Source: a virus
IMG/VR virus record: IMGVR_UViG_3300047334_000146
Coordinates: 1 to 21,606 of that record
DNA length: 21,606 nucleotides
Reading direction: 5' to 3' (one strand)
Part shown: one piece after another, positions 2,500-21,427 of the stretch
Layout: each line of letters opens with the position of its first letter
How positions within the stretch are numbered: the first letter of the stretch is position 1
Program-made: the position numbers and the translations under genes
The notes under the pieces: model-generated
Databases searched by the model: none
The model's input: only the letters and a program-made list of their open reading frames with translations
What the model was told of the DNA's origin: nothing

Positions 2500-4770
2500 T
2501 CAGGCGATGCTCAGCACGCCGCCATTGTTCCAGATCTGGTTGGAGCCGGCGGCGGGCTTGCTGGTCGGCAAGCCGGGCGCGAACAGCCCGGTCCCCGGCG
2601 AAAGCCACAGCGCCCCCTTGGGCTGGATGCCGATGCCGCCCGCATTGGTCGTCACCTCGCACAGATTCTGCCCGGTGGCGTTGCCGATCGCGATCCAGTT
2701 GGTGGAGCCGGGCACGTTCAGCAGGCTCAGCATGTTCCCGCTATTGCTCGTGCCGCCCGCCGCGTTGATGAACAGCGACCCGCCCTTGGTCTGGATCACG
2801 CCATTGATGGTGCCGTCCGTGCCGTCGAAGATGATGGTCGGCGGATTGGTCGCGGTCACGGGTTCGATGCGGACATAATTCGCCGCCTTCGGCACCGCAT
2901 TGATCCGGAAGAGCGGCGAGCCATCCACCGCGGTGAACAGGTGGTCCTTGGTGTTCGCGACACCGGACGGCGCCGTGCTCGTCGCCGGAGACTGGAACGT
3001 CACCAGATTGCCGTTGCTCGCCGCTGAATTATCGATGATGGCGGTCGCCAGCGGCACGTTATAGGGGTTGAGCCCGAATGTCGTGAGCCCCACCGTCGCA
3101 TTGCCGGTGCCGATGTTCAGGATCGTCGCCATGTCCTGGAAGGTCGAGCCGCCGACCACGTTGCCCGATGAATCGAACGTGCTGGTGAACCTGAAAGCCG
3201 TGTCCTGATTGTTCCCGCCCGCCGGGCCGCCGATGAAATTGCAGCCCATGACGAAGAAGCTGGAAACGTTGGTCAGGTCGAACAGCACCTGTGGCGTATT
3301 CGGGCCGCCCTCGCGCGTGATGTCGAGCCCCACGAAGAAGCCGTTGCCCACGGCGGCAGCCTGCACCGTGCCCAGGCTGCAATTCAGCTCGCCATTCGCC
3401 ACCCACAGCCCCAGCAGCATCAGCTTGGTCGGTGCATAACCGGGCCAGGTGGTGATATCGGTCTGCTTGAACAGGTAATCCGTGCCCACCACGAGCGGAT
3501 TGGTGAAATAGATGCCTTCGCAATAGCCCGTCTGCAGAACCGCCGCGTTGCCGTAATACGCCTGCAGGCCGGTGATGCGCGTGTCGATCGAGCCGTTCAC
3601 CTCGATCACGGCGGTGCTCGTGGCGCCCGCGGTCGCTGGCGGGCCGAAGAAGCTGATGTTGTTGACCTGCACGCTCCAGCAATTGTTCAGCACGAAGCCG
3701 CGCAGGAAGGTCTGCGGAAACGGTGACGCCCCGCTGGACGGGTTGGGATAGCCGAAGCACTCGATATCAGTGATGAAGCCCGACACGTAACCGAACGAAA
3801 TCTCCTGCGGAAAGGTCAGCCGCGCCACGGCCGCCGTCTGCCCGCCGGTATTCTCCGCGTAGGCCGAAAAATCCCGCAGCACCACGCGGTTCGTCGGCAC
3901 GGTCTGCGAAATGTCGAAGCCGATACCGGTGTGCTGCAAATGCAGCCGCGTGATCGCCTTGCCCGCACCGCGTATGGTCAACGGCTTGCCTGCCCAGACC
4001 AGGCTGCTCGCCAGCTGGTAATCGCCTGCCGGTATGAAGATCTCGCCACCCGCATTCGGCAGCGCCGCGAAGGCCGCGTTGAAGGCGGCGGTGCAATCCC
4101 CGCCGCCCGCCACGGCGCCGAAATCCAGCACGTTGACCGTATCCAGCGACATGGCCTGCAGCGTGCGGCTCGGCGCGCCGGTGGCGACCTGCACCGTGCC
4201 CAGCGTCACCGGCCCCGCTGTCGGCGCCGTGATGTCGCCCTGCGCATTCAACGATACATAGCCGCCCGCCGGGATCTTCGCCGCCAGCGCCGCCAGATTT
4301 GCCTCAGTCGTGTTCAGCCCTGTCGTCAGGGACGCAAGCTCGCCCGTCACCGACGCATCCGTGCTCGCCGACACCGTGCCGGCGGCACTGATCGCCACGT
4401 TCGTGCCCGCGGTGAACAGTCCGCGCAGCAACGGCATCGGCACGCGGGATGGCGTCCCGCCCGAATTCACGATGACCTGATCGTTCAGATTGAGCGCGCT
4501 CTCCAGCGCGAATCCCGCATGGTCCGCGCCATCGGCCGACAGTGCCCCGCTCTGCAGCGCCAGCCCCGTCGCCACCGTCACCGGCTCCGGTCCGCCCGGC
4601 CCCAGCGACACGCGCCCCAGCAGCGTCGCGCTCGGGATTTCGATCGCCGGCTGCGTCCCGGCCAGCAGTTCGGCCACCGTGACGGATCGCGTGATCCCCG
4701 CCTGGCTCACGGGAAATTCGTCCTGGGCTCCCGAGCTGGTTGCGGCCGGCAATTGCGGAATGGTCGGCAT
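2500..4770 (-). CDS. Tailspike 2, pectate-lyase-like beta-helix
   Basis: The protein has 756 residues; the ATG at 4770 has a strong Shine-Dalgarno (GGAGGA, 6 nt spacing). Residues 1 to about 120 match the N-terminus of the neighbouring tailspike: both begin MPTI and share the pattern LLAGxQPA...PSxxLLGR at identical positions 35-53, as expected of a virion-anchoring domain. Residues about 140-165 look helical, perhaps a trimeric neck. DFGAV at 216-220 followed by AAF and PAGDY marks the start of a right-handed beta-helix of the pectate-lyase-3 superfamily, running to roughly residue 590. The C-terminus (about 660-756) resembles phage fibre ends, finishing with NQIWNNGGVLSIA. The likely role is binding, and possibly cleaving, a surface polysaccharide. 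No catalytic residues can be assigned from sequence alone. Confidence 0.85.
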   Translation of the reverse strand: MPTIPQLPAATSSGAQDEFPVSQAGITRSVTVAELLAGTQPAIEIPSATLLGRVSLGPGGPEPVTVATGLALQSGALSADGADHAGFALESALNLNDQVIVNSGGTPSRVPMPLLRGLFTAGTNVAISAAGTVSASTDASVTGELASLTTGLNTTEANLAALAAKIPAGGYVSLNAQGDITAPTAGPVTLGTVQVATGAPSRTLQAMSLDTVNVLDFGAVAGGGDCTAAFNAAFAALPNAGGEIFIPAGDYQLASSLVWAGKPLTIRGAGKAITRLHLQHTGIGFDISQTVPTNRVVLRDFSAYAENTGGQTAAVARLTFPQEISFGYVSGFITDIECFGYPNPSSGASPFPQTFLRGFVLNNCWSVQVNNISFFGPPATAGATSTAVIEVNGSIDTRITGLQAYYGNAAVLQTGYCEGIYFTNPLVVGTDYLFKQTDITTWPGYAPTKLMLLGLWVANGELNCSLGTVQAAAVGNGFFVGLDITREGGPNTPQVLFDLTNVSSFFVMGCNFIGGPAGGNNQDTAFRFTSTFDSSGNVVGGSTFQDMATILNIGTGNATVGLTTFGLNPYNVPLATAIIDNSAASNGNLVTFQSPATSTAPSGVANTKDHLFTAVDGSPLFRINAVPKAANYVRIEPVTATNPPTIIFDGTDGTINGVIQTKGGSLFINAAGGTSNSGNMLSLLNVPGSTNWIAIGNATGQNLCEVTTNAGGIGIQPKGALWLSPGTGLFAPGLPTSKPAAGSNQIWNNGGVLSIA

Positions 4771-9065: not shown

Positions 9066-9274
9066 GTCAGAGCCTTTCAGATTTGCCGGATGGGAGGGAA
9101 GGAAGGATGGGAGGGAAGGAAGGATGGGAGGGAAGGAAGGATGGGAGGGAAGGAAGGCCGGGAGGGAAGGAAAGCCGGATGCACGGCCCCTGGGCCTCGC
9201 TGGGGGCAGGGCCTCCAGACCTCCATGAGCTGTGCCCGCCAGGCCCGTGCTTCGCAGCAGGCCGCGGGCCTTCT
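9066..9274 (-). promoter_or_regulatory. Leader region of the fibre gene (209 bases non-coding)
   Basis: This gap separates the baseplate gpI-like gene from the Gly-rich fibre in an operon where most neighbours touch or overlap. It contains five 17-bp polypurine repeats ending 24 bases upstream of the fibre start. It also holds a 7-bp inverted repeat AGGCCCG/CGGGCCT (9241-9247 with 9265-9271), whose loop contains CGTGCTTCGCA (9246-9256), the core of the 24-bp array at 15918-16037 in the other orientation. No convincing -10/-35 pair and no T-run after the inverted repeat are visible, so neither promoter nor terminator can be claimed. Confidence 0.4.
9090..9174. repeat. 17-bp tandem repeat, five copies, polypurine
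   Basis: The unit ATGGGAGGGAAGGAAGG is repeated exactly at 9090-9106, 9107-9123, 9124-9140 and 9141-9157. A degenerate fifth copy lies at 9158-9174. The octamer GCCGGATG flanks both ends (9085-9092 and 9174-9181). The plus strand, which is the template for the phage operon, is almost pure purine, with two GGG runs per unit. The unit length is not a multiple of three, so it is not built as a coding repeat. Confidence 0.95.
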
Positions 9275-13777: not shown

Positions 13778-14890
13778 TCAGCCTCCGATCATGGCGCCGG
13801 CCGGAAACACCCCGCGCCTTGGGTCGAAAGCGGCGTTCCCGCTTGCCGGCCGCCCCGCTTCCGCCGCCAGCGTTCGTGCCATCCAGCGCCCCAGCAACGT
13901 CCCATCCAGGTACACGTCGCCCTCCATCGGCCCGGCCGCCGCGGCCGCGGCCGCAGGTGGCGCGGGGCTACCCGGCGCGGCCACAGCCTCCGCCCGCTCC
14001 ACGATCCGCGCGTCGGTCACCCCGCCCGCGCCATCCCGCGCCGGCGCTGCCCGCCCGCCTTGGGCGCCCGCCTCCGAGGCAGCCGGCGCCCATGGCAAAC
14101 CGAGCCTGCTTCCCGCTCCGCCGCCAGGCCGCCCCGGCCCCGCTGCCGCAGGCGCCACTGCCCCCGGTGTCGACAGCCCAGCTGCCGTCACATACGGCGC
14201 CACCTGCCCCAAACCGGCTGCCACGCCCGCCGCGCCCGGCCATCCCGGCAGGGCCCGGCCAGCCGGCACCGGGGCCACCGTCGCGGCGCCAGGGGCTGCG
14301 CTCTTCCCGGCGTCCGCGCCGTAAGCCATCCCACGTCCCGGCGCCGCGCCTATCCGGGTCCCGGCCTTCGGCACGCCGTCTCGGGCGGTTCTGCCGCCCG
14401 GCGCCGCATCGCGCGGCGCAGCCGCCGGCGCGGTCCCAGCCTGCGCCGTAAACCCGCCAGCGCGATCGTCATGGAGCCGCAGCTTCACGCGCCCCGCCGG
14501 CGCGGCCTGCGCCACCCCAGCCGTCTTCTGCTCCTGCCGTGGCGCGACCTCGGGCCCGGGCGCGGGCACCGCCCGCGTTCCGCCAGGCCCTGCCCCTGCC
14601 ACCGCCGCGCTCTTCCCGGCCTCCGCGCCGTAAGCCATCCCACGTCGCGGCGCCTCCACCGGCGCGTCCCGGTGGCGCGCCGAAGCCGGCCCGGCCTCCT
14701 GGCGCTGCGGCGCCGCGGTCACCGCCCGCTCCGCGGCTGCCATCAGCCGCGCCAGCCCGGCATCATCCACCCGTGCGCCCAGCCAGGCCGACCGCCCGGC
14801 ATCCACCAGCCGGAAAACCCCCAGCCGGCGCGCCAGCGCCGCCGCCCCGTCTGCCGCCCCGTCTGCCGCCCCGTCTGCCGCGTCGCGCAT
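13778..14890 (-). CDS. Ala/Gly/Pro-rich protein in the tape-measure position
   Basis: The protein has 370 residues from the ATG at 14890 (GGAG 8 nt upstream). A GTG at 14899 with GGGGA six nt upstream is an equally possible start. The slot between the chaperone frameshift pair and the gpN-like gene is normally that of the tape measure protein. The sequence is unusual: roughly half is Ala, Gly or Pro, with few large hydrophobics and no long coiled coil. Near the N-terminus is a DGAA x3 repeat, and the motif GMAYGA[ED]AGKSA occurs twice. The last ~45 residues look conserved and folded (GDVYLDGTLLGRWMARTLAAEA...AFDPRRGVFP), like the C-terminal cap of alphaproteobacterial tape-measure-type proteins. 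At about 1.5 A per residue it would specify a tail near 55 nm. The function is positional inference. Confidence 0.6.
   Translation of the reverse strand: MRDAADGAADGAADGAAALARRLGVFRLVDAGRSAWLGARVDDAGLARLMAAAERAVTAAPQRQEAGPASARHRDAPVEAPRRGMAYGAEAGKSAAVAGAGPGGTRAVPAPGPEVAPRQEQKTAGVAQAAPAGRVKLRLHDDRAGGFTAQAGTAPAAAPRDAAPGGRTARDGVPKAGTRIGAAPGRGMAYGADAGKSAAPGAATVAPVPAGRALPGWPGAAGVAAGLGQVAPYVTAAGLSTPGAVAPAAAGPGRPGGGAGSRLGLPWAPAASEAGAQGGRAAPARDGAGGVTDARIVERAEAVAAPGSPAPPAAAAAAAGPMEGDVYLDGTLLGRWMARTLAAEAGRPASGNAAFDPRRGVFPAGAMIGG
14298..14345. repeat. 48-bp direct repeat, copy A, inside the tape-measure-slot gene
   Basis: This segment matches 14607-14654 at 46 of 48 bases by eye, in the same orientation. 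The offset is 309 bp, exactly 103 codons. Both copies encode RGMAYGA[D/E]AGKSA in the gene's reading frame. Confidence 0.9.
14607..14654. repeat. 48-bp direct repeat, copy B, inside the tape-measure-slot gene
   Basis: This is the partner of 14298-14345 and differs at two positions. In this copy the flanking residues are EAPR before and AVAGAG after, against AAPG and APGAAT in the other, so similarity drops sharply outside the 48 bp. Confidence 0.9.
14845..14880. repeat. 12-bp tandem repeat, three copies
   Basis: The unit CCCCGTCTGCCG occurs three times without change and encodes the repeated DGAA near the N-terminus of the tape-measure-slot protein. The unit is a multiple of three, so copy-number change would keep the frame. 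Confidence 0.9.
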
Positions 14891-14932
14891 GCCACTCACT
14901 CCGCTTCCCCAGGGCGCCGCGTCGCGCCCACC

Positions 14933-15435
14933 TCAAGGCGTGCGCCAGCTCATCGACGCCCAGTCGAACGCGAACCCGTCCAGCTGTCCCAGCGCCACCA
15001 CCCAGGCCAGCCGCTCGGACGGCGCCAGGCTGAACGCCACGTCGAACGGCACCCCGTTCCGAACCAGGTACAAACTATCCACCAGATCGGGGTGCCCGCT
15101 CAGTTTCCCGGGTCGGCTGCCTCCGGGCCCGCGCCGTCCAGCGCATCGGCCACCGCCGCGATGCCCGCATCGCCGAGCCGCCGCACCAGCGCCTCCACCT
15201 GCTCCTCCGTCACCGGCGCGGGCACCGGCACGCCGTCGATCTCCGTCACCGCCGAGGCGAGCAGCGCCATGCCCAGATATGGCGCGTTCATGGAGAGCGT
15301 GGCGCCCAGCGCCTTAAACAGCCGCAACCGGTCCAGCGCATCCAGCCGCCGCAGCGTCAGCACGCGGCCGCCCGCATCCGTCGCCGCGACACGCCGCCCC
15401 GCCTCCGCCACCAGCCGCTCGGCAGGCCCTGCCAT
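14933..15435 (-). CDS. Tail assembly chaperone, long form made by -1 frameshift (GT-like)
   Basis: The frame after the first chaperone's stop is not independently startable by ATG. A -1 slip on GGGAAAC (15109-15103) gives CTG AGC GGG CAC ... and a 56-residue extension ending at a TGA at 14935-14933. The extension reads as a real protein: LSGHPDLVDSLYLVRNGVPF, then DVAFSLAPSERLAWVVALGQ, LDGFAFDWASMSWRTP, including the aromatic W...G..FDW..M.W ending common in tail-chaperone extensions. The fusion would be 167 residues. In lambda (G/GT) and P2 (E/E+E') such pairs recruit the tape measure and tube subunits at a fixed ratio. Location between the tube and tape-measure-slot genes is the classic one. 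The frameshift is predicted from sequence, not measured. Confidence 0.85.
15100..15435 (-). CDS. Tail assembly chaperone, short form (G-like)
   Basis: The protein has 111 residues from the ATG at 15435, which overlaps the tail-tube stop codon (TGATG). A longer in-frame start at 15501 was rejected because it lies inside the tube gene. The protein is mainly helical: MAGPAERLVAEAGRRV, LRRLDALDRLRLFKALG, LGMALLASAVTEIDGVPVPAPVTEEQVEALVRRLGDAGIAAVADAL. It has the length and helical character of phage tail-assembly chaperone N-parts. Its last codons GGA AAC form the slippery site with the stop TGA directly behind, so it is both a product and the first part of the frameshift protein. Confidence 0.82.
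   Translation of the reverse strand: MAGPAERLVAEAGRRVAATDAGGRVLTLRRLDALDRLRLFKALGATLSMNAPYLGMALLASAVTEIDGVPVPAPVTEEQVEALVRRLGDAGIAAVADALDGAGPEAADPGN
15103..15109 (-). promoter_or_regulatory. -1 ribosomal frameshift slippery heptamer GGGAAAC
   Basis: The minus strand reads CCG GGA AAC TGA, so the heptamer G GGA AAC is in the X XXY YYZ phase needed for tandem -1 slippage, with the stop as the next codon. Slipping opens a 56-codon frame. No strong downstream stem-loop or pseudoknot was seen by eye. Confidence 0.85.
15120..15124 (-). promoter_or_regulatory. Internal Shine-Dalgarno (GGAGG) upstream of the slippery site
   Basis: GGAGG lies in the chaperone coding sequence with exactly 10 nt (CAGCCGACCC) between it and the heptamer. 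An internal Shine-Dalgarno at this distance stimulates -1 frameshifting in E. coli dnaX. The matching spacing suggests the same role here. Confidence 0.6.
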
Positions 15436-15863
15436 CAGATGCGCTGCCGCTGCGTCGCGAAGAATTCCAGCTTCTGCTTCACGCTGGAATCGCCCCGCCA
15501 CGTGCCCGAATTGCTCACCCGGAACACCACGCCGCTATATTGGTAGGTGGAGGTCGAGCCATCCACCTCCTGCACGTACTGATACACCGTGCCGGCCGGC
15601 AGATAGCCCTGCGTGAAAAACGCCTGTTCCGCCGCCGCCATGAAATCATCGACCGCGCTGGTCCCGCGCTCCACCTCGAAGCTGCCCTCCCAGCCTTTCG
15701 GCAGTTCCGCACCCATCGGCACGCCATCCAGCCGGTCCAGCCGCACCGACTGCGTCAATTGCCGGCTCTCGAACCCTGTCACATAGGACAGATCGACGCG
15801 TCCCTGTGGTCCGAGCACGACGAGCTGGCAGTCCCTGCCTATGGAGAACGAATTGATCGGCAT
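15435..15863 (-). CDS. Phage tail tube protein
   Basis: The protein has 142 residues; the ATG at 15863 has AGGAAAGG upstream. The sequence fits the small tube proteins of contractile tails: MPINSFSIGRDCQLVVLGPQGRVDLSYVTGFESRQLTQSVRLDRLDG, then GWEGSFEVERGTSAVDDFMAAAEQAFFTQGYLP, a beta hairpin YQYVQEVDGSTSTYQYSGVVFRV and GTWRGDSSVKQKLEFFATQRQRI. Hexameric rings of this protein form the inner tube through which DNA passes. It sits between the sheath and the chaperone gene, the canonical order, but is separated from the sheath by a 206-base repeat-bearing gap. Confidence 0.88.
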   Translation of the reverse strand: MPINSFSIGRDCQLVVLGPQGRVDLSYVTGFESRQLTQSVRLDRLDGVPMGAELPKGWEGSFEVERGTSAVDDFMAAAEQAFFTQGYLPAGTVYQYVQEVDGSTSTYQYSGVVFRVSNSGTWRGDSSVKQKLEFFATQRQRI

Positions 15864-15917
15864 GGCATGGCCTTTCCTGGAATCACCCGGCGCGATTGAC
15901 TGAAGGCCAGGGCGTCG

Positions 15918-16037
15918 TGCGAAGCACGCGCCTAGCGTGGGTGCGAAGCACGCGCCTCGCGGTCGTGCGAAGCACGCGCCTGGCGTGGGTGCGAAGCACG
16001 CGCCTGGCGTGGGTGCGAAGCACGCGCCTCGCGTGAC
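15918..16037. repeat. 24-bp tandem repeat, five copies, each with a GTGC-GAA-GCAC hairpin
   Basis: Consecutive 24-bp units start at 15918, 15942, 15966, 15990 and 16014. The first 16 bases, TGCGAAGCACGCGCCT, are identical in all five; the last eight vary (AGCGTGGG, CGCGGTCG, GGCGTGGG twice, CGCGTGAC). Each unit, with the base before it, contains the inverted repeat GTGC/GCAC around GAA, read as GUGC-UUC-GCAC in the phage transcript. The array fills most of the gap between sheath and tube genes. Copies are back to back with no spacers, so this is not a CRISPR. Confidence 0.95.
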
Positions 16038-16069: not shown

Positions 16070-17635
16070 TCAGCTCGGCAGGATCTGCTGCTGCACCAGC
16101 ACGGTCTGCCCACCCTCGACATTGACGATGAACTTCTCGTTGATGCCCTGATACTGCACCTGCGCATCGCTCTGCACGTAACCCAGGCTCGTCCGCGCCG
16201 GCGGATTATTGCTCGCGTCGCAAATCACCGAGAACGGCAACTTTCCGTTGCCGGTCATGCCCAGAATGCCCTGGCTCAGCAGCGTCTGCAGAAAGCTCAG
16301 CTGCGTCGAGCGGATTTGCTGGAACAGCTGGGTGTTGATCACCTGGCCCACGAACGGTCCCATGCCCGCCGCCAGCGTCGCCGCGATGAAATTCGTCATC
16401 CGGCTGTAATTGTCGCCATTGGTCGCGGCGTTGCCCGACGTGTTATGTCCGCACCTCACGCCCCAATAGGCGCCCCCAGGCTGCGGATTGGCGATCACGT
16501 CGATGCCTGCCGCAAACAGCGTCTGCAGCTCCGTCTCGCTATAGGTCGAGACCTGCCCGCTGCCCGGCAGCCCGGAGCGCTGCGTGCCGATCACGCTGTA
16601 CAGCGGCTTGTTCAGGCTCGATTGCGCGGGCGAGAGATTCCCCAACCGCCCGGCCACGAAACCCTGGGGTGAGACCAGCCGGATCACGCCGTTGCTCTGG
16701 TCGCTCCAATAGACCCAATCGCCGAACATCAGCTTGGCGCTGGTCGCATCGAGCCCCGCCTGCTGCATCACCATCACAGCGTCGGTGATCGTGTCGCCAG
16801 ATGGTCCCGTCAGGATCATGTAAACGCCTTCGGAGGCGCCGAACGCGGCCTGCGTCACCCATTGCGTGGGATCGTCGCTATCCGCCAGCACGCCGATGCT
16901 GCAGCCCTGGCCCCGCAGCGCATACATCCCCGTGCGCGGCACGACGTCCTGGCCCACCAGCACCGTGGCGCTCACCGCCGCCGCGCCATCCGTCCCGCCC
17001 AGCAATGTCCGTCCCGTCACCGCCGCCGGCGCGGTGCTCAGTGCCGTGCCTGCCGTCGCCACGACGAGCTGAGACGCACCGCGCAGCGGCCCCGTCCCGT
17101 CATTCACCGCATTGACCAGCGCCGGCCAGAACGTCGCCGGCGACGCCCCGGGGATGTTGTCGTACACCTCCGGCAGCAGCCCAGGCATGGCGAGCGTCAG
17201 TTTCCACGTTCCGGCCTGCGATCCCGTAGTCAGCGCCACGCTCACCGTATTGCCGAGTGCGCCGCTGTACCGCGCCGTCAGCATCGCGGCATAGGCGCCG
17301 TTCGCCACCCCGAATGCATAACTGGCGGCGGTATCGGTGCCATCCGTCACGCGCACGCAGCGGAACCCGGTGGCGCCCTGCTGCACCGCCGTCGCCACCT
17401 GCGTGCCCATATCGTATTTGCGCACGATCACCGGCCCGAACGCCGCCGCGTAATCCGCCATGGAACCCGCGATCACCGGCTGGTTCACCGGCCCCCAGCT
17501 CGCCGTGCCGACGATCCCCACCAGATTGGTCGGCACGCCGTTCAGCACCAGATTCTGCGGCGGCACGATCTGCACGTACAGATCCGGCACCACCAGCGCC
17601 GCGGTATTGATCGATCCCTGCTGATAAATCGTCAT
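16070..17635 (-). CDS. Contractile tail sheath protein
   Basis: The protein has 521 residues; the ATG at 17635 has AGGAGGG 7 nt upstream. It is recognisable as a phage sheath protein by its opening (YQQGSINTAALVVPDLYVQIVPPQ..LNGVPTNLVGIVGTASWGPVNQPVIAG), the middle domain, and especially the C-terminal domain with NYSRMTNFIAATLAAGMGPFVGQ, LSFLQTLLSQGILG and the final strands that join neighbouring subunits (NEKFIVNVEGGQTVLVQQQILPS). It forms the outer contractile tube around the tail tube protein. It follows the 52-residue gene after 3 nt. Presence of this gene defines the particle as a myovirus-type phage. Confidence 0.93.
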   Translation of the reverse strand: MTIYQQGSINTAALVVPDLYVQIVPPQNLVLNGVPTNLVGIVGTASWGPVNQPVIAGSMADYAAAFGPVIVRKYDMGTQVATAVQQGATGFRCVRVTDGTDTAASYAFGVANGAYAAMLTARYSGALGNTVSVALTTGSQAGTWKLTLAMPGLLPEVYDNIPGASPATFWPALVNAVNDGTGPLRGASQLVVATAGTALSTAPAAVTGRTLLGGTDGAAAVSATVLVGQDVVPRTGMYALRGQGCSIGVLADSDDPTQWVTQAAFGASEGVYMILTGPSGDTITDAVMVMQQAGLDATSAKLMFGDWVYWSDQSNGVIRLVSPQGFVAGRLGNLSPAQSSLNKPLYSVIGTQRSGLPGSGQVSTYSETELQTLFAAGIDVIANPQPGGAYWGVRCGHNTSGNAATNGDNYSRMTNFIAATLAAGMGPFVGQVINTQLFQQIRSTQLSFLQTLLSQGILGMTGNGKLPFSVICDASNNPPARTSLGYVQSDAQVQYQGINEKFIVNVEGGQTVLVQQQILPS

Positions 17636-21273: not shown

Positions 21274-21427
21274 GAGCGCGCTCCGCACGACCGAGGCGCG
21301 CGCTCCGCACCATCTAGCAGCGCGCTCCGCACGACCGAGGCGCGTGCGTCGCACCACCTAGCAGCGTGCGCCGCACCATCTAACAGCGTCCGCCGCAGCA
21401 TCTCGCAGCGTGCGTCGCACGACGCCC
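21274..21427. repeat. 22-bp tandem repeat, seven imperfect copies
   Basis: Units begin at 21274, 21296, 21318, 21340, 21362, 21384 and 21406, all exactly 22 bp. The consensus is (c/g)(a/c)gcg(c/t)(g)c(t/g)(c/t)CGCAC(g/c)A(c/t)C(g/t)AG. Copies alternate between a GCGCGCTCCGCAC and a GCGTGCGTCGCAC core; the latter contains the palindrome GTGCG-T-CGCAC. The array begins 14 bases after the stop of the 53-residue gene. Confidence 0.85.

What the first reader, a model, noticed from the sequence alone, without database searches (positions are those of the whole stretch)
14933..15435. Programmed -1 frameshift in the tail chaperone gene with dnaX-like signal layout
The chaperone's final codons form G GGA AAC in the correct phase, with TGA immediately after, and a -1 slip opens a 56-codon protein-like frame ending just before the next gene. 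GGAGG lies exactly 10 nt upstream of the heptamer, the geometry of the stimulatory Shine-Dalgarno in E. coli dnaX. The combination of slippery site, adjacent stop and internal Shine-Dalgarno without an obvious downstream stem is a compact frameshift cassette that ATG-based gene calling would miss.
Basis: partly seen in the sequence, partly recalled or inferred. Interest (0 to 1): 0.65.

Follow-up and report, generated by a model that had tools for sequence, protein, structure and literature searches.

The report
Tail-chaperone frameshift signal with conserved hairpin

Summary
On the minus strand the 111-codon ORF at 15435-15100 ends G GGA AAC TGA (heptamer 15109-15103). A -1 slip opens 56 codons to 14933, giving a 167-residue fusion, and GGAGG lies 10 nt upstream of the heptamer.

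Across 125 relatives with an in-phase slippery heptamer (91 non-redundant), mostly Acetobacteraceae prophages and viral contigs, plus Paraburkholderia, Phytobacter and Komagataeibacter phage phiKX1, the downstream domain is always in the -1 frame. The heptamers are 83 GGGAAAC, 7 AAAAAAC and 1 AAAAAAA. One further relative, L123, lacks a heptamer. No conserved start codon precedes the domain, and -1-frame constraint begins at the slip site.

A 9-bp GC-rich hairpin starts 6 nt after the heptamer, is 97.5% paired, and shows compensatory changes at three pairs. The upstream SD-like element is real at family level but weak and variable.

AlphaFold plus Foldseek places the 0-frame protein next to the HK97 tail assembly chaperone. 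The neighbours are sheath, tube and a tape-measure-like gene. This is a new member of the known lambda G/GT class, not a new system. The slip itself was not measured.

The parts
15100..15435 (-). 0-frame ORF, short product (111 aa), G-type tail assembly chaperone; matches PHROG 20383 (unknown function)
   Evidence: PHROG E 2.9e-18; AlphaFold2 pLDDT 89.7; Foldseek PDB rank 1 = 2ob9 HK97 tail assembly chaperone, E 0.07, prob 0.89; VIA-align Z 5.2 to 2ob9 and 4.8 to 3klu YqbN; lies between tube and tape-measure-like genes
15120..15124 (-). SD-like GGAGG, 10 nt upstream of the heptamer (probable upstream stimulator)
   Evidence: Family enrichment of anti-SD pairing: z -6.7 for 141 loci, z -3.2 for 40 loci below 70% identity; in this window alone 12% of codon shuffles match it
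15103..15109 (-). slippery heptamer G GGA AAC
   Evidence: 83 GGGAAAC, 7 AAAAAAC, 1 AAAAAAA in 91 non-redundant relatives, always in phase at the junction
15100..15102 (-). 0-frame stop TGA abutting the heptamer
   Evidence: adjacent stop in 44 of 61 non-redundant viral loci, otherwise 6-7 codons further on
15088..15096 (-). 5' arm of the stimulatory hairpin (GGCACCCCG), 6-nt spacer after the heptamer
   Evidence: 97.5% of cells paired, 8 cells with double compensatory changes in 3 pairs, slid controls 36-48% paired
15048..15056 (-). 3' arm of the stimulatory hairpin (CGGGGTGCC); covers the frozen Gly-Val codons GGG GTG
   Evidence: Val codon GTG in 90 of 91 relatives, while other conserved Val codons in the same domain vary
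14933..15103 (-). -1 frame extension (56 codons plus stop), T-type domain of the 167-aa fusion
   Evidence: 71% of single-base codon differences are synonymous in the -1 frame versus 23% and 11% in the other frames, first 12 codons after the heptamer; conserved LxxHPDxxxxLYLVRNGVPFDVAF
15435..15863 (-). upstream neighbour: probable tail tube gene (PHROG 12993, unknown function)
   Evidence: PHROG E 6e-41; lies next to the sheath, same order in Phytobacter and Paraburkholderia prophages; the tube role is inferred from position
16070..17635 (-). tail sheath gene
   Evidence: phrog_23 tail sheath E 4.6e-48
13778..14899 (-). downstream neighbour: short tape-measure-like gene (likely start ATG 14890)
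   Evidence: C-terminal GDVYLDGxxVGRWM motif found in 52 of 125 loci, also at the C-terminus of the Paraburkholderia gene that matches tape measure PHROGs; no direct family hit for the window protein

Best explanation
The gene at 15435-15100 encodes a G-type tail assembly chaperone of a contractile-tailed phage. Most ribosomes stop at the TGA and make the 111-aa protein. A minority, probably a few percent, pause with GGA and AAC in the P and A sites, held by the hairpin 6 nt downstream and in many relatives helped by an SD-like pairing upstream. They slip to GGG AAA and continue in the -1 frame to make a 167-aa G-T fusion. By analogy with lambda, the G part coats the tape measure and the T part recruits tail tube subunits. 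Shown here: slippery heptamer, frame, conservation, hairpin covariation, fold and gene order. Inferred: that slippage occurs, its rate, and the assembly roles.
For: (1) All 125 relatives with a heptamer carry it in phase at the junction, with three heptamer variants that keep only the slip rule. (2) The codon before GGA encodes A, P, Q, L, V, E or T, yet ends in G in all 57 GGGAAAC loci of the first set. (3) The downstream domain is in the -1 frame everywhere. The genome search would have accepted an in-frame fusion (one of its peptide patterns spans the junction) and found none. (4) -1-frame coding constraint starts at the heptamer: synonymous fraction 0.71 versus 0.23 and 0.11, and 0.79 in 47 loci that have no ATG, GTG or TTG before codon 17. 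(5) The hairpin covaries in position-specific fashion and its Gly-Val codons are frozen. (6) SD-like pairing is enriched 4-12 nt upstream. (7) The fold is nearest the HK97 chaperone. (8) Gene order is sheath, tube, chaperone, then (after a neck gene in distant relatives) tape measure.
Against: No peptide or reporter data. G_GGA_AAC is a low-efficiency heptamer in E. coli (PMC4066793), although it is used by IS elements and by haloarchaeal virus HCTV-1 (PMC5009743). L123 lacks the heptamer. L005 and L125 do not form the same hairpin well. The fold match is suggestive rather than strong (Foldseek E 0.07, TM 0.45).
Confidence: 0.94

Rival explanations
1. The -1 frame is a separate small gene translated from its own start codon, by coupling to the upstream stop codon (termination-reinitiation), with the GGAGG serving as its Shine-Dalgarno.
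For: phiKX1 is annotated this way, with an ATG start 14 nt after the stop. SD sequences near gene ends often serve coupling (PMC5009743). In the window CTGA overlaps the stop and a CTG.
Against: 47 of 91 relatives have no ATG, GTG or TTG in the -1 frame before codon 17, which lies in the conserved core; 58 of 61 have none in the 60 nt upstream. The first -1 codon is CTC, CTT, CTA, CGC or ATA in many. In 17 of 61 the stop is 6-7 codons away. It does not explain the invariant heptamer.
Confidence: 0.03
2. Transcriptional slippage at the homopolymer run produces mRNAs with one base more or less, and standard decoding makes the fusion.
For: Members with A AAA AAC or A AAA AAA have runs of 6-7 A.
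Against: 83 of 91 use GGGAAAC, which has no run longer than three. A hairpin 6 nt downstream and the codon phase of the heptamer fit ribosomes, not polymerase.
Confidence: 0.02
3. The two frames are a decayed or misassembled single gene (sequencing error or pseudogene).
For: The window is a metagenomic viral record with no cultured representative.
Against: The same arrangement occurs in 125 loci including isolate genomes (Acidisphaera sp. L21, Paraburkholderia, Phytobacter) and phiKX1, with constraint in both frames.
Confidence: 0.01
4. The hairpin is a by-product of coding for His-Pro-Asp and Asn-Gly-Val-Pro and does not stimulate slippage; the heptamer alone does the work.
For: The arms overlap conserved residues; L005 and L125 lack the canonical stem.
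Against: Double compensatory changes at 8/54, 9/53 and 12/50 in different clades, frozen GGG GTG codons where other Val codons vary, and slid controls at 36-48% pairing versus 97.5%.
Confidence: 0.08

Closest known systems
lambda gpG/gpGT and the conserved tail assembly chaperone frameshift of dsDNA tailed phages (Xu, Hendrix and Duda 2004; reviewed in PMC5009743)
   Same: Small gene between the major tail protein and tape measure genes, -1 slip near its 3' end at an X_XXY_YYZ site, C-terminal extension domain, fold near the HK97 tail assembly chaperone 2ob9
   Different: Contractile-tail phage; heptamer GGGAAAC abuts the 0-frame stop in most members; covarying downstream hairpin plus variable SD-like element; no family-level sequence match to named chaperones (PHROG 20383, unnamed)
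E. coli dnaX -1 frameshift cassette
   Same: Upstream SD-like element, heptamer, downstream stem-loop; 10-nt SD spacing in this window (dnaX spacing recalled from general knowledge)
   Different: dnaX uses A_AAA_AAG at about 50% efficiency and makes the shorter product by shifting; here the shifted product is longer, the heptamer is a weak one, and the SD spacing varies
IS3-family and IS911 frameshift windows (PMC4066793)
   Same: Heptamer plus hairpin, SD-like element in part of the family; G_GGA_AAC is used by some IS elements
   Different: Different gene and function; IS911 has a branched three-way-junction structure
Komagataeibacter phage phiKX1/phiKX2 (LC644975, LC644976)
   Same: Same gene order, A AAA AAC TGA at the junction, same GGCACCCCG/CGGGGTGCC stem
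   Different: Annotated as two hypothetical proteins, the frameshift not recognised; about 33% identity for the fusion protein

Membership tests
Phage tail assembly chaperone (G/GT type) | Gene lies between the major tail (tube) protein and the tape measure | tested here: met
   Sheath, tube, chaperone, tape-measure-like in the window and relatives; the window's own tape measure is identified only by a C-terminal motif and the tube by position
Phage tail assembly chaperone (G/GT type) | Chaperone fold | tested here: met
   Best PDB matches are 2ob9 HK97 chaperone and 3klu YqbN; modest scores (E 0.07, Z 5.2), so supportive, not proof
Phage tail assembly chaperone (G/GT type) | Programmed frameshift near the 3' end giving an extended minor product | tested here: met
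   Comparative signal in 125 relatives; the product itself was not observed
Phage tail assembly chaperone (G/GT type) | Binds tape measure (G) and tail tube (T); absent from the mature virion | not testable with these tools
   Needs biochemistry
-1 programmed ribosomal frameshift signal | In-phase X_XXY_YYZ heptamer | tested here: met
-1 programmed ribosomal frameshift signal | Downstream structure starting 5-8 nt after the heptamer | tested here: met
   9-bp hairpin after a 6-nt spacer, with covariation; no conserved pseudoknot found
-1 programmed ribosomal frameshift signal | Upstream SD-like stimulator (optional) | tested here: inconclusive
   Enriched family-wide (z -3.2 to -6.7) but spacing varies and many members lack it
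-1 programmed ribosomal frameshift signal | Measured slippage in vivo | not testable with these tools
   No reporter or proteomic data
dnaX cassette | A_AAA_AAG heptamer in the DNA polymerase tau/gamma gene | tested here: not met
   Different heptamer and different gene; the layout works like dnaX but is not a member

The most novel reading that the evidence does not exclude
In this phage group a weak slippery heptamer placed directly against the 0-frame stop is tuned by three interchangeable aids (slow termination at the abutting stop, hairpin, SD-like pairing). Lineages trade these aids against each other to hold a set G:GT ratio for unusually short tape measures.
Probability: 0.2. Interest if true: 0.45.

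Novelty: new member of a known kind. Interest (0 to 1): 0.3.

Why it matters
It gives a likely function to an unnamed protein family (PHROG 20383) and its unannotated C-terminal extension, which public records such as phiKX1 list as two hypothetical proteins. It also offers a natural data set of about 90 diverged versions of one bacterial frameshift signal with hairpin covariation and a variable SD element, useful for asking how much each stimulator contributes. As a phenomenon it is well known.

Tried and rejected
Pfam and NCBIfam gave no family for the chaperone, the extension or the downstream gene (one sub-threshold RHS_repeat match judged spurious); PHROG 20383 is unnamed. A profile search of PDB sequences gave nothing. 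Rfam gave no hit. A scan for a conserved pseudoknot found no long helix between the hairpin loop and downstream sequence; the other helices at or above 80% pairing were only 4-5 bp and lie mostly in coding-conserved positions. tblastn for the Phytobacter and Paraburkholderia homologues in phage records and blastn in E. coli genomes gave no match. The exact-pattern scan was not used for heptamer or stem statistics because it selects for them; it was used only for the upstream SD test. The window GGAGG alone was rejected as evidence because it is within codon-shuffle expectation.

Full report
Observation. The region is on the minus strand. The 0-frame ORF 15435..15100 encodes 111 aa and ends CCG GGA AAC TGA. 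GGGAAAC lies at 15109-15103 in X_XXY_YYZ phase and the -1 frame continues for 56 codons to a stop at 14935-14933. GGAGG lies at 15124-15120, 10 nt upstream. The window is a whole IMG/VR record of 21,606 bases. GGGAAAC is expected about once in such a sequence and is found once, so the comparative evidence decides.

Relatives. A search of viral contigs with an alignment of fused proteins found 323 relatives, of which 80 were kept. With the first set this gave 90 entries (including the window and its near-identical copies), 61 of them non-redundant. Every one has the downstream domain in the -1 frame and an in-phase heptamer exactly at the junction: 57 GGGAAAC, 3 AAAAAAC, 1 AAAAAAA. A genome scan gave 36 loci, mostly Acetobacteraceae (Rhodopila, Acidisphaera) with single Paraburkholderia and Phytobacter cases; 35 have the heptamer. 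One peptide pattern of that scan spans the junction and would match only an in-frame fusion; none was found. The exception L123 has lost the heptamer, keeps the -1 arrangement and has an in-phase U_UUU, a tetramer class that PMC4066793 reports as shift-prone.

Why it is a slip and not a second start. The codon before GGA varies in meaning (A, P, Q, L, V, E, T) but always ends in the base that the heptamer needs. No other heptamer of the type XXXYYYN (Y = A or T) occurs in 2,730 upstream codons of 91 relatives. In the first 12 codons after the heptamer, among loci with an adjacent stop, 71% of single-base codon differences are synonymous in the -1 frame, 23% in the 0 frame and 11% in the +1 frame. 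In 47 of 91 loci there is no ATG, GTG or TTG in the -1 frame before codon 17, and in those the synonymous fraction is 0.79. Independent initiation and CTG reinitiation are therefore not tenable as the general mechanism.

The hairpin. There is one: positions +7..+15 pair with +47..+55 (window 15096-15088 with 15056-15048), 9 bp, 6-nt spacer, the longest conserved helix in the region. The window RNA from the slip site folds into it (-31.7 kcal/mol for 74 nt, z -2.3). On 53 diverse sequences 97.5% of cells pair, versus 36-48% in slid controls; three pairs show double compensatory changes (0-2 of 500 shuffles reach the covariation measures). The changes are in different lineages: 8/54 G-C to C-G (L006, L009), 12/50 C-G to G-C (L015, L016, L020, L025) and to U-A (L120), 9/53 C-G to A-U (Phytobacter L126). 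The Val codon in the 3' arm is GTG in 90 of 91 although other conserved Val codons vary. Shuffle counts treat sequences as independent, so they overstate significance; the separate lineages of the compensatory changes are the stronger argument. No conserved pseudoknot was found.

The SD-like element. Mean anti-SD pairing energy peaks 7-10 nt upstream of the heptamer and exceeds codon shuffles (z -6.7 for 141 loci; z -3.2 for 40 loci under 70% identity). About half of the loci have a GGAG, GAGG or AGGA core 5-14 nt upstream (32 of 61 against 10 expected). The exact 10-nt spacing is not conserved, and in the window alone 12% of shuffles do as well. It is a probable, dispensable helper.

What the gene is. 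AlphaFold2 on 31 homologues gives a confident model (pLDDT 89.7). Its best match among solved structures is the HK97 tail assembly chaperone 2ob9 (Foldseek E 0.07, prob 0.89; VIA-align Z 5.2), followed by 3klu YqbN (Z 4.8). Several named tail assembly chaperones appear in the viral library. Upstream lie the tail sheath (phrog_23, E 5e-48) and the probable tube gene. Downstream lies a short Ala/Pro-rich gene whose C-terminal GDVYLDGxxVGRWM motif is shared with the C-terminus of a Paraburkholderia gene matching tape measure PHROGs. In the Phytobacter relative the tape measure is clear (phrog_28, E 1e-25).

Comparison with what is known. Frameshifting between the two tail chaperone products is widely conserved in long-tailed dsDNA phages; lambda uses about 30:1 (PMC5009743). 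Measured efficiencies for two HK97-like cases were 6-7% (PMC3711429). G_GGA_AAC is used by haloarchaeal HCTV-1 (PMC5009743) and by IS elements, and is weak in E. coli (PMC4066793), which fits the need for stimulators. Stimulatory structures typically start 5-8 nt downstream (PMC4066793); here it is 6. The finding is thus a new member of a known kind with a well-resolved signal. The slip rate and the assembly roles are inferred, not measured.

Noticed in passing
window 15917-16035: Tandem 24-bp copies (about five) containing GTGCTTCGCAC hairpin units between the sheath and tube genes; strongly folded (z -4.3). Of 226 fetched loci only the window's own copy and its near-identical contig (there seven copies) carry the array (one stray copy in L156).
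   Followed up: partly
window 13778-14899: Putative tape measure gene is very short (about 370 aa; 264-516 aa open frames in relatives) and Ala/Pro-rich, recognised only by its C-terminal motif; would imply a short tail if the usual length rule holds.
   Followed up: partly
window 9088-9172: Five copies of a 17-bp GGATGGGAGGGAAGGAA repeat near the start of the ORF at 9278-7827.
   Followed up: no
L123 around 4315-4380: Only relative without an X_XXY_YYZ heptamer; has CAT TTT CCG (in-phase U_UUU) at the site and a shortened stem, still with the -1 domain.
   Followed up: partly
window 21275-21420: 22-bp tandem repeats of AGCGCGCTCCGCACCACCGAGC type upstream of the major capsid gene.
   Followed up: no
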